Assembly (NCBI GenBank): GCA_951812775.1
Contig: OX638326.1
Span: 384,335-448,334, forward strand
Direction: 5' to 3'
Length of the DNA: 64,000 nt
Source: an uncultured Alphaproteobacteria bacterium
GTDB taxonomy: Bacteria; Pseudomonadota; Alphaproteobacteria; MPNO01; UBA2964
The first letter of the stretch is position 1; the number at the start of each line of letters is the position of its first letter. This document shows, piece by piece, positions 23,280-26,403 of the stretch. Below the pieces are notes generated by a model, which was not told the DNA's origin, did no database searches, and saw only the letters and a program-made list of their open reading frames with translations. The translations under genes were made by a program, and so were the position numbers.

Positions 23280-23286
23280 GAAGTTT

Positions 23287-23337
23287 AGCGCGTCTCAGTT
23301 CACCTCATATGAGGTGGGTTGAGGCGCGCTATTTTTT
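23287..23337 (+). terminator. Terminator of the purine permease, also the left flank of the mobile element
   Basis: AGCGCGTCTCA and TGAGGCGCGCT arms, with an inner CACCTCATATGAGGTG palindrome, form a long stem followed by ATTTTTT. The T-run is the left copy of the 8-base target duplication (23330-23337). Read on the minus strand, the same DNA encodes the lost C-terminus of tag. Confidence 0.8.
23330..23337. repeat. Target-site duplication, left copy (TATTTTTT)
   Basis: The 8 bases directly outside the left terminal repeat are identical to the 8 bases directly outside the right one (25900-25907). Eight-base duplications are usual for the IS1595 family. Confidence 0.85.
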
Positions 23338-23362
23338 GGCGATTGTATATTTGACAAACCCA
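23338..23362 (+). repeat. Left terminal inverted repeat of the IS1595-type element
   Basis: The 22 bases at 23341-23362 (starting GATTGTATATTTGACAAA) are the exact reverse complement of 25875-25896. Adding the outer GGC, the match to the right end is 24 of 25 bases. Confidence 0.9.
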
Positions 23363-23469
23363 GCAATGATAGAGAGTTTATCTGACCGCCGAGCATAGCT
23401 GGATCAGTCGTCTTTCTTGTCGTCGTCGAGCTTCTTGCCAGCCTTAGCGATCTATTTGGGATTTATCAG

Positions 23470-24039
23470 TCATGGAAGCAAGCTCGGTTGTTCGTGGATA
23501 GGTTCGCATCTTTTTAGATCAACTGCGCGCTTAAGAATTTCAGTTTGCTCCACGCCTTCAAGCCATAGGTGATAGTCAAGAAGCGGCACCCCACGACCCT
23601 CTGGATTGCCCTTGCCACGTCCATTGTCGTAAGTGTGAAACGCATCAAGGTTCACACCATAGGTCTCTTCAATCTCCAAGGCAGTAGACAGCATGATTGC
23701 GTCGCCAGTTGTCAAAACCCGATTGTTGGAGTCTTGTCGCTTGTAAGCCACGTCTTTCAATAGGCCTGCGTTGATGTTTACATGAATTCCGCTCTCAACA
23801 ACAAATATGGAGCCACGAAAGTCTCCCAGAAACTCTTGAAATGAACCGTGAGAGGATTTCTTGAGTCTTTTTGGTGTGATCTCAGCCAAAGCGATGGCGG
23901 AAGTGTAAATCTTACTCCCGTTCTTTTCTTGGGTTTCAGAAATAAACTTCGCTAAGCTGGCTGTATCATATATGTGGCTGTCATCGTTGAGGTACGCAAT
24001 GAATACACACGAATCCCAGAAATAGTGCTTCCCTGCCAT
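23470..24039 (-). CDS. PIN-domain protein, transposon passenger
   Basis: PIN domains are Mg-dependent RNases, best known as VapC-type toxins. The 189-residue protein has the pattern of acidic residues expected of the fold: Asp9 in YFWDSCVFIAYL, Glu53 in SAIALAEITP, Asp113 in TTGDAIMLSTAL and Asp138 (or Asp132) in the DAFHTYDNG stretch. It is longer than a typical VapC (about 130 residues), with about 50 extra C-terminal residues. I chose the ATG at 24039, which forms a TAATG overlap with the stop of the upstream 269-residue gene; a TTG two codons earlier is possible. Its partner is not a VapB-like antitoxin by size or sequence, so the role is open. Confidence 0.75.
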   Translation of the reverse strand: MAGKHYFWDSCVFIAYLNDDSHIYDTASLAKFISETQEKNGSKIYTSAIALAEITPKRLKKSSHGSFQEFLGDFRGSIFVVESGIHVNINAGLLKDVAYKRQDSNNRVLTTGDAIMLSTALEIEETYGVNLDAFHTYDNGRGKGNPEGRGVPLLDYHLWLEGVEQTEILKRAVDLKRCEPIHEQPSLLP

Positions 24040-24848
24040 TACCAAATGTCCTCAGAACTAGGGTATGGGAGATGATCGAAACCACCTCTCCAATTCATTA
24101 AGCTTCCAGCGTCACCCAAGCGATCAATTCTACGAATCTCGATTTGTTCGGGCAGACGGTCATTTCCATTGTAGTGCGCGAGAGCGGACACGGTTACACG
24201 TTGGTCCAAAGCGTCTTTAAGGTTTTCAACTGTGACGGAATTACAGGTGCAATCCAGCTCTCGGCCCCCAACATTCAGGATTAACTTTGCGCTAGCTACG
24301 GTCCCTCTAAGGTCAACTTCCTTTAGCTCTCCATCAAATGTTCCATACGCGACACCCTCAAAGAGATTCACGATATTGCTAGAAGCTTTGTACTCTCTGA
24401 ATGCTCTTTCAGCCTTCTTTTCAAAAAACTTGTCAACTCTAACAACTGTGTCGGGCTGGCCTTTCACACCTATTTCACCGTGGGAGAAAGCCTTATCCGC
24501 GCCGCGACCAAACATAGAGAGTACGCTCGCAATTGTCGGGCTGGTTTCTTTCGGGATACCTCTGCCATCCCGAACGCTAACCGCCACATCTTGGACCACC
24601 AATACGCTGGAGGTTTTTGGAAATTTCTTGGTGCTATAAGGACGCTCTGCCACGGCGGCGAATGCGCTGCCGTACTCAAGATCGCTAATGAAATAGTCAA
24701 AGGTCTTGTTGCCGTGACTCTGGCGGTCAGCAGCCTTCAGGGCTTTAATCAATTGAGACAACTTTTTAGCGAAGACATTCGCGCGCACGTCCTCACCTTC
24801 ACCCTTAAGGCCAAACAGTTTAAGTTCTATTTGTTCATTCTTAGCCAT
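24039..24848 (-). CDS. Protein of unknown family, transposon passenger upstream of the PIN gene
   Basis: I do not recognise this 269-residue protein. It has no signal peptide and no membrane segment. The N-terminal third has a strand-like IELKLFGLKGEG, then an amphipathic Lys/Ala helix (about residues 25-42), then YFISDLEYGSAFAAVAERP, and the C-terminal third contains VENLKDALDQRVTVSALAHYN. It starts 26 bases after the transposase stop with GAGGAG about ten bases upstream of the ATG, and its stop overlaps the start of the PIN gene, so the two passengers should be made together. It might control, bind or immunise against the PIN protein, but nothing in the sequence proves that. Confidence 0.65.
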   Translation of the reverse strand: MAKNEQIELKLFGLKGEGEDVRANVFAKKLSQLIKALKAADRQSHGNKTFDYFISDLEYGSAFAAVAERPYSTKKFPKTSSVLVVQDVAVSVRDGRGIPKETSPTIASVLSMFGRGADKAFSHGEIGVKGQPDTVVRVDKFFEKKAERAFREYKASSNIVNLFEGVAYGTFDGELKEVDLRGTVASAKLILNVGGRELDCTCNSVTVENLKDALDQRVTVSALAHYNGNDRLPEQIEIRRIDRLGDAGSLMNWRGGFDHLPYPSSEDIW

Positions 24849-24874
24849 AAAATCATGCTCCTCTGGCGTAGATT

Positions 24875-25830
24875 CTACGCGCCCAATGAGTCCCTATACA
24901 GTACCCGTTTTCCTACAATACTCATCAATGCGACATTTGCACGGCCTAAATCGTCCACACCGTTGGCGATGAGATTGTTATACCGAAATTCAAATTCTGC
25001 CGCATAACGATGAAGATGTTGTTTACCGCAATGCTGATAAACGCCCTTCATGCCGCGCTTGAAGATGCTGAAATAGCCCTCAATCGTATTAGTATGGACA
25101 ACACCGCGGCCATACTCGCCCTTGCTGTGTGTCGTGAAATCGTGGTCTGCAAAGTGCTTACTAATGCCAGTGTATTGCTTGGCTTCGTCAGTGTAGACCG
25201 TCGCCTCTTTCGCGATGTTTGCCTATAAGGATCGGCACCAGAGTTGCTTTTGTCACGTCCTTAACGACGAAAGACTTAGATTGACCAGTCGTGCGATCCA
25301 CAAGGGAAAGCATGGCGTTCTTGTGAGCGTAGCCACGCGCGTCTTCTTTCTTCTTGTACTTTTGACCAATGAATGTCTCGTCAACTTCTACAACGCCACC
25401 GCCAAACATAGGGCCACCATCGGAGCGCATAGCCTCACGAATGCGATGAGACATGAACCACGCGCTCTTATAAGTGATTTCCAGAACGCGGTGTAGCTGG
25501 TGGCTGCTTACGCCCTTCTTGCTGGATACCATGAGGTGAATTGCTTGAAGCCACTTGTGCAGTGGAATGTGGCTTTCTTCGAAGATTGTGCCAATGCGTA
25601 CCGTGAATTGCTTGCGGCATTCCGCGCACTTCTTGAGGCCGTGACGTTCGACGCCTTCTGGGTTCTTCTTAGACGGCTTGGAGCGAACGCCGTTCAGGAC
25701 GTAGATTTTATCGCAGTTGCCGCAGTGGGGGCAGTGGGGGCAAACTGGGCCGGTTAACCCAAAGCATACCTTCAACATGCTTAAACGCTGCGGCTTCGTC
25801 GTACATATGTGCTTTGGACAGAACAGACAT
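24875..25830 (-). pseudogene. IS1595-family transposase with two frameshifts
   Basis: Three consecutive frames together give a full-length protein of about 315 residues. It starts MSVLSKAHMYDEAAAF (ATG at 25830, with AGAGGAAA upstream), has a zinc ribbon (CPHC...CAEC), the segment KGVSSHQLHRVLEITYKSAWFMSHRIREAM and an ISXO2-like DDE core (VEVDETFIGQ, YTDEAKQY, NTIEGYFSIFKRG), and ends at 24877-24875. A one-base insertion near 25752 separates the start from the zinc ribbon and another near 25222 splits the catalytic domain; a 9-base duplication at 25722-25739 repeats Pro-His-Cys in the zinc ribbon. The longest open piece is 25188-25778. As written the enzyme is not made; either the element is dead or the bases are assembly errors. 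Confidence 0.88.
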
Positions 25831-25857
25831 TTCGATTTCCTCTAACTCTATGAGAAG

Positions 25858-25886
25858 AATATACGAAACTCACTTGGGTTTGTCAA
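25858..25886 (-). promoter_or_regulatory. Strong promoter of the element, formed by its right end
   Basis: On the minus strand TTGACA (25881-25886, inside the terminal repeat) and TATATT (25858-25863) are 17 bases apart; the first is a perfect -35 and the second matches five of six -10 bases. It points at the transposase ATG about 20 bases downstream of the predicted start and would also drive the two passenger genes. Confidence 0.7.
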
Positions 25887-26403
25887 ATATACAATCACCT
25901 ATTTTTTTGAATACCGGACAAGAAACGGTATGGGCTCCTGGTAAATACCCCGTGCTCATCAGGAACTCACCGGTTATCTCCCCACCAGTAAAAAGAAACG
26001 TTTTCTTGAAGAGCTTAACCCATTCGTCTTTTTCTAGCGGGTGATGATGATCGAGCCAGTTTCCAAACGACCCATTCTCGTTTTGTAATTCAAGAATTGT
26101 GCGAGCGTTCTCGATCACTGCAGTGACCTTGAGTTTGTTCCGTATGATGGCGGCGTTGCTCAACAAACGCTCGCGATCATCTTCGCCGTAATTGGCGACG
26201 CGACGAATATCAAAACCTTCAAATGCTTCTCGAAACCCTTCCCGCTTTTTCAGGATAGTAAGCCAGGAAAGTCCCGCCTGATTGATTTCAAGGACAAGCC
26301 TCTCGAAAAGAACGTTGTCATCAGTAACCGGAAAACCATATTCCAGGTCATGGTACGGGCCGTGAAAAGGATGCCCAGGTGCGATCTCGCAATAATGGGG
26401 CAT
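25870..26403 (-). CDS. tag: DNA-3-methyladenine glycosylase I (Tag), C-terminus replaced by transposon sequence
   Basis: Tag removes 3-methyladenine from DNA in base excision repair. The 177-residue protein has the family's YHDLEYGFPV, the catalytic-site stretch LVLEINQAGLSWLTILKKRE (Glu39), and apparent zinc ligands Cys5, His18, and the His and Cys of PGAHTVSCPV near residues 158 and 162. The last nine residues (GDCIFDKPK) are read from the end of the IS1595-type element. Removing the element and one target copy restores KKIARLNPPHMR and a stop, and LNPP is typical for this family's end. The zinc site lies before the break, so activity may survive. It follows the DUF1467 gene by five bases. 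Confidence 0.9.
   Translation of the reverse strand: MPHYCEIAPGHPFHGPYHDLEYGFPVTDDNVLFERLVLEINQAGLSWLTILKKREGFREAFEGFDIRRVANYGEDDRERLLSNAAIIRNKLKVTAVIENARTILELQNENGSFGNWLDHHHPLEKDEWVKLFKKTFLFTGGEITGEFLMSTGYLPGAHTVSCPVFKKIGDCIFDKPK
25875..25899 (-). repeat. Right terminal inverted repeat of the IS1595-type element
   Basis: This is the reverse complement of the left end, with 22 identical bases inside and one mismatch in the outer three. It carries the -35 box of the element promoter and now encodes part of the altered tail of tag. Confidence 0.9.
25900..25907. repeat. Target-site duplication, right copy (TATTTTTT)
   Basis: It is identical to 23330-23337 and directly abuts the right terminal repeat. 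It lies within the tag reading frame. Confidence 0.85.

What the first reader, a model, noticed from the sequence alone, without database searches (positions are those of the whole stretch)
23338..25899. IS1595-type element carrying two non-transposase genes, with intact ends and target duplication
Seen directly: 22 identical inverted bases at 23341-23362 and 25875-25896 (24 of 25 with the outer three), flanked on both sides by TATTTTTT. Inside are a transposase plus 1.4 kb of intact cargo. The ends enclose the cargo, so it is part of the mobile unit and not a neighbour. IS1595 members are known to give 8-base duplications and sometimes to carry passengers.
Basis: partly seen in the sequence, partly recalled or inferred. 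Interest (0 to 1): 0.75.

Follow-up and report, generated by a model that had tools for sequence, protein, structure and literature searches.

The report
Small transposon carrying a nuclease pair
This is a real 2.56-kb jumping gene of the IS1595 family whose own transposase is now broken but whose two passenger genes (a PIN-type nuclease and an unnamed partner) are open; it belongs to a branch in which every complete copy found carries passenger genes, often restriction or toxin-antitoxin genes, usually beside an undescribed tiny protein.

Summary
Two same-genus genomes have the empty site with one TATTTTTT, in the T-tract of a terminator. The transposase is IS1595 but has two frameshifts. The cargo is an open two-gene operon: H (269 aa, no known family) and a PIN nuclease with its acidic residues kept. 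The same tnp-H-PIN order lies between IS1595 ends in Roseomonas (empty-site proof, 697/697), Methylobacterium and two more genomes; H-PIN also occurs without IS1595. A survey of 65 related loci found 41 complete elements, all with cargo (1.8-4.3 kb), 16 with Pfam-supported restriction-modification, toxin-antitoxin or nuclease genes; 34 of 41 also carry one of four tiny protein types, whose type follows transposase ancestry more closely than cargo does. Cargo-bearing IS1595 elements ('tIS') are known. The H-PIN cargo and tiny accessory proteins appear undescribed in what I could search. Best reading: an immobilised tIS that delivered a toxin-antitoxin-like or defence module. Function is inferred, not tested.

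The parts
23330..23337 (.). left target duplication TATTTTTT (T-tract of the permease terminator)
   Evidence: sequence; empty site with one copy in two same-genus genomes
23338..23362 (.). terminal inverted repeat, 25 nt
   Evidence: same end type in related elements
23404..23473 (-). probable remnant of a type A tiny-protein gene (MTDKSQIDR* ... AKAGKKLDDDKKDD*), start overlapping the PIN stop
   Evidence: three-frame reading resembles L022 small protein MTDKKTQLDRF...LAKQKADDKKADD; same gene position as in L002; DNA alignment only weak: suggestive
23470..24039 (-). PIN-domain nuclease gene (189 aa), open; acidic residues D9, E53, D113, D138 kept
   Evidence: PF01850, E 0.0024, below cut-off alone; relatives in L002, L024, L061, L064, L018, L020 pass the cut-off; alignments
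24039..24848 (-). H gene (269 aa), partner upstream of PIN, open; stop and PIN start overlap (TAATG)
   Evidence: no Pfam/NCBIfam/PADLOC hit; homologues beside PIN in six other loci
24875..25830 (-). IS1595-family transposase gene, two frameshifts (25753-25739 and 25227-25219)
25875..25899 (.). terminal inverted repeat, 25 nt
25900..25907 (.). right target duplication TATTTTTT
23286..23337 (+). intrinsic terminator (hairpin -35.9 kcal/mol, z -8.1, plus T-tract) of the upstream permease gene: the insertion target, not part of the element
   Evidence: conserved in same-genus genomes

Best explanation
A cargo-carrying IS1595 element (a 'tIS') that inserted into the T-tract of a terminator between two convergent genes, duplicating 8 bp. 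Its transposase and probably its tiny accessory gene have since decayed, so it can no longer move by its own enzyme. The cargo operon H-PIN is still open and most likely encodes a two-protein toxin-antitoxin or abortive-defence module: PIN the RNA-cutting toxin or effector, H its co-translated partner that restrains or aims it. Shown: mobile unit, insertion, broken transposase, open cargo, recurrence of the trio in other elements. Inferred: that H-PIN is expressed, that PIN is a toxin, that H controls it, and that it was kept because it is useful or addictive.
For: Ends, duplication and empty sites. IS1595 transposase in three frames. Same gene order tnp-H-PIN in Roseomonas marmotae p1318-1 (ends 20/24, TSD TATCTTTA, joined flanks 697/697 identical to an uninterrupted IS30 copy), Methylobacterium oryzae pMOC1 (TSD AATCGGAA; PIN annotated as VapC), L061 (TSD 7/8) and L064 (TSD 8/8). 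H partners are one family by profile comparison (E 2e-8 and 6.5e-11). PIN active-site acids invariant in the seven-sequence alignment. H stop and PIN start overlap. H-PIN also stands alone in two genomes, one beside another transposase, as TA and defence modules do. Other elements of the same branch carry DUF433/PIN_10, SocA/Panacea, MTase+BglII, MTase+NotI, HsdM+HsdS-like and GmrSD+HEPN genes. H and PIN stay open while the transposase is broken.
Against: No function was tested. The window PIN scores below the Pfam cut-off by itself. PADLOC has no model for H or PIN. H is far larger than usual VapB-type antitoxins and shows no known DNA-binding domain. AlphaFold models from single sequences were too poor to use (pLDDT 31 and 35). 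Frameshifts could in principle be sequencing errors. 'Cargo open, transposase broken' is one copy, not a selection test.
Confidence: 0.6

Rival explanations
1. H-PIN is part of the transposition machinery or its control rather than cargo: the PIN nuclease trims transposition or transcript intermediates and is needed for movement.
For: Overlapping operon downstream of tnp in the Roseomonas copy; same order in five elements.
Against: Only 5 of 41 complete elements carry H-PIN; nearest transposases (L022, L023, L060) lack it; H-PIN is not clustered on the transposase tree (4 changes, shuffled mean 4.9); H-PIN exists without IS1595.
Confidence: 0.08
2. Anti-phage or anti-plasmid defence module without addiction: H senses an invader and activates PIN.
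For: Branch cargo is rich in restriction-modification, GmrSD and methylase-Mrr/PD-Lambda-5-like genes; H is large enough to be a sensor.
Against: No defence model hits H or PIN; gene order partner-then-PIN and overlap also fit a toxin-antitoxin pair.
Confidence: 0.25
3. Ordinary IS1595 inserted beside unrelated genes; cargo is only a neighbour captured by chance ends.
For: None beyond the general possibility.
Against: Same-genus genomes lack the whole 2.56 kb; chance control 0 of 108; same trio between ends elsewhere.
Confidence: 0.01
4. H-PIN is neutral debris: the element is dead and the cargo has simply not decayed yet.
For: Single copy, broken transposase, apparent decay of the tiny gene.
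Against: Both cargo frames (810 and 570 bp) are open with PIN active-site acids kept, while the 956-bp transposase has two frameshifts.
Confidence: 0.2

Closest known systems
IS1595-family transporter IS (tIS), e.g. MTnSag1/tISSag10, tISCpe8, ISNha5 (described in PMC5704250, PMC11891212; tIS in general in PMC7986276; original Siguier et al. 2009, title seen only in reference lists)
   Same: IS1595 transposase, GG-ending inverted repeats, 8-bp duplications, passenger genes inside the ends
   Different: Cargo is H-PIN, not lincomycin resistance or a regulator; transposase broken in this copy; relatives usually carry a tiny lineage-specific protein not mentioned in the passages read
Tn3-family transposons with toxin-antitoxin pairs (Lima-Mendez 2020, PMC7157771)
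   Same: Transposon carrying a two-gene module with a PIN or HEPN toxin, several independent acquisitions
   Different: Different transposase family, no resolvase here; antitoxins there are known families (Phd, AbrB and others), here H is a 270-aa unknown family
VapBC toxin-antitoxin systems
   Same: PIN nuclease downstream of and overlapping with a partner gene; one relative annotated VapC
   Different: Partner H is about 270 aa with no known DNA-binding domain; toxicity and neutralisation untested

Membership tests
IS1595 insertion sequence family | IS1595-type DDE transposase | tested here: met
   NF033547 E 1.1e-30, score 107 over cut-off 75; 70% identity to annotated IS1595 transposases; gene frameshifted
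IS1595 insertion sequence family | 8-bp target duplication, inverted ends beginning GG | tested here: met
   empty sites; 8-bp duplications as a family feature are stated in PMC8101967
IS1595 insertion sequence family | transposes | not testable with these tools
   single copy, broken transposase; a sister R-M element in the same genome has two full-length identical copies and two further partial matches at other places
tIS (IS with passenger genes) | passenger genes inside the ends, not needed for transposition | tested here: met
   inside the ends; absent with the element from empty sites; other elements of the branch lack H-PIN, so it is not required by the branch; not tested at the bench
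VapBC / type II toxin-antitoxin | PIN toxin with conserved acidic residues | tested here: met
VapBC / type II toxin-antitoxin | small antitoxin with known DNA-binding domain | tested here: not met
   H is 269 aa with no family hit
VapBC / type II toxin-antitoxin | toxicity of PIN and neutralisation by partner | not testable with these tools
   bench test needed
known anti-phage defence system | match to a PADLOC model | tested here: not met
   no hit for H or PIN

The most novel reading that the evidence does not exclude
This branch of IS1595 is a standing shuttle system for defence and toxin-antitoxin genes: every element carries a swappable one- or two-gene module, and each transposase lineage is paired with its own tiny basic protein (types A-D, about 45-65 aa, no Pfam family for the two types tested) that is part of the transposition machinery or its control, so that these minimal transposons are two-protein systems, with some lineages favouring terminator T-tracts as harmless landing sites.
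Probability: 0.3. Interest if true: 0.75.

Novelty: new variant of a known kind. Interest (0 to 1): 0.57.

Why it matters
It shows how single-module restriction, toxin-antitoxin and nuclease genes can move one at a time on very small transposons, without plasmids, phages or large islands. It names a concrete, testable PIN partner family (H). It also raises the question why a simple IS would need a tiny lineage-specific partner protein, which can be tested with a mating-out or excision assay.

Tried and rejected
Close-relative scans for H and PIN in genome contigs and viral contigs found nothing, nor H in phages. H against solved structures: only chance-level hits; PIN profile: none. AlphaFold2 on single sequences of H and PIN: unusable, so no fold search. 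Searches for papers on IS1595 with restriction, defence or toxin cargo found none describing this pattern in titles and abstracts shown; Siguier 2009 is not held. Hypothesis 'cargo swaps freely while only the tiny protein follows the transposase' was weakened: cargo class is also clustered (8 changes vs 17 shuffled), though less than tiny type (5 vs 25). The terminator control restricted to non-ORF positions is crude because six-frame ORFs mask nearly all of a GC-rich genome; one search is the fairer control.

Full report
OBSERVATION. As a control, the same search (arms >=18/24 and duplication >=7/8) found nothing at 43 anchors downstream of the elements and nothing in 65 shuffled loci, but found 41 pairs at 65 real transposase loci. 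The insertion is shown directly: in two same-genus genomes (G300, G210) the permease gene, its terminator and the glycosylase gene are contiguous with one copy of the octamer site. The terminator hairpin folds at -35.9 kcal/mol, z -8.1, and the element sits in its T-tract.

ANATOMY (minus strand). Transposase 25830-24875: IS1595, but aa 1-26, 28-202 and 205-320 of the nearest relative align in three different frames, so this copy is a pseudogene unless the sequence has errors. H 24848-24039, 269 aa, no Pfam, NCBIfam or PADLOC hit. PIN 24039-23470, whose ATG overlaps the H stop (TAATG); Pfam PIN at E 0.0024, below the cut-off, but homologues pass it and the four acidic residues are invariant. 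Behind PIN, 23473-23404, is what looks like the two ends of a tiny gene with the middle missing; this is suggestive only.

OTHER COPIES. The window's element is single in its genome. A tblastn of H against plasmids found one place: Roseomonas marmotae p1318-1, with IS1595 transposase, H (30%) and PIN (39%) in the same order, ends 20/24 and TSD TATCTTTA. It sits in an IS30 transposase gene, and its joined flanks are 697/697 identical to an uninterrupted IS30 copy on the same plasmid. Methylobacterium oryzae pMOC1 (TSD 8/8), L061 (TSD 7/8) and L064 (TSD 8/8) also carry tnp-H-PIN between ends. H proteins of these five are one family by profile comparison. Two further genomes hold H-PIN with no IS1595 transposase found beside it; in one it lies beside a different transposase.

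THE BRANCH. A profile of the transposase hit 69 of 385 genomes of the same class (the tool does not name the class, the nearest named records are Alphaproteobacteria). I fetched loci for the strongest hits and searched 65 loci, plasmid records and the window included, for ends and duplications. Of these, 41 gave complete elements, 1833-4306 bp, median 2562; none is transposase-only. Pfam supports restriction, methylase, toxin-antitoxin or nuclease cargo in 16 of 41: the five H-PIN elements (for the window's own PIN through its homologues), L063 (DUF433 + PIN_10), L077 (SocA/Panacea), L029 (D12 methylase), L104 (C5 methylase + GIY-YIG), L109 (D12 methylase + NotI), L110 (N6 methylase + type I specificity domain), L112 (methylase + BglII, own genome), L087 and L090 (GmrSD, with HNH or HEPN), L108 (GIY-YIG), L083 (NYN). 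PADLOC adds PD-Lambda-5_B and mad2-type matches among the cargo proteins scanned together, without saying which member. Many other cargo proteins are unknown.

TINY PROTEINS. An all-against-all comparison and profile search found small basic proteins recurring beside the transposase or cargo: type A (RFKEAARELETDDDEARFNERLRKLAK, same strand as tnp) at 20 loci, type C (RDEVLRRMLNTPPKPH plus a lysine-rich tail, opposite strand) at 25, type D at 4, type B at 3; no locus has both A and C. Among the 41 complete elements 34 carry one. Types A and C have no Pfam hit. In 142 genomes type A has 9 hits and type C 18; an IS1595 transposase lies within 1.5 kb in 7 and 13 of them. On the transposase tree the type needs 5 changes (25 when shuffled); four cargo classes need 8 (17 shuffled); H-PIN needs 4 (4.9 shuffled). 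So the tiny gene travels with the transposase lineage, cargo somewhat less so, and H-PIN appears to have been gained or lost several times. Labels were assigned by sequence similarity (a few type B by motif only) and the tree was a quick search.

TARGETS. Duplications of the 41 are AT-rich (65% vs 38% at random positions), and 10 of 41 lie in terminator-like T-tracts against 16 of 820 control positions. Controls are mostly coding DNA, so part of this is a preference for intergenic DNA.

KNOWN AND NEW. IS elements with passenger genes (tIS), IS1595 members among them, are established (PMC5704250, PMC11891212, PMC7986276), and toxin-antitoxin pairs in Tn3 transposons are described (PMC7157771). 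I found no text describing H-PIN cargo, the defence-rich cargo of this branch or the tiny proteins, but the founding IS1595 paper is not held and ISfinder could not be searched.

VERDICT. A real, now probably immobile, cargo-carrying IS1595 element; the cargo is most likely a toxin-antitoxin or defence module. New variant of a known kind; the wider pattern is the interesting part.

Noticed in passing
G000:C1 about 1.037, 1.516, 3.613 and 4.046 Mb (L113-L116): Four loci of the host genome carry the same IS1595 transposase (100%) of an element with a DNA methylase and a BglII-type restriction gene; two are full-length and identical (2748 bp), the other two matched at the right end only. One has TSD AATTTTAA; the left flank of a second (AATCCATA) matches the right flank of a third, suggesting recombination between copies.
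   Followed up: partly
L022, L023, L002, L024, L060-L112: Two families of tiny basic proteins (types A and C) with no Pfam model recur in elements of this IS1595 branch; type follows transposase ancestry.
   Followed up: partly
23286-23337: The element and about a quarter of its complete relatives sit in T-tracts of terminator-like sites (10 of 41 vs 16 of 820 controls).
   Followed up: partly
L066, L074, L078, L081, L086, L091, L092, L100, L027: Recurrent cargo proteins of about 170-265 aa falling in one BLAST cluster, possibly HEPN-like (only L078 gives a weak HEPN hit).
   Followed up: no
L022:4966-5232; L063 and L086 similar small ORFs: Small possibly Cas2-like proteins as cargo (L022 weak CRISPR_Cas2 hit, E 0.005).
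   Followed up: no
L020/L021 (G461:C37): H-PIN pair directly beside a different transposase (ISNCY-like by my reading) in another genome of the phylum.
   Followed up: no
L002:3700-6700: The Roseomonas H-PIN element interrupts an IS30 transposase gene, of which uninterrupted copies exist in the same strain.
   Followed up: yes
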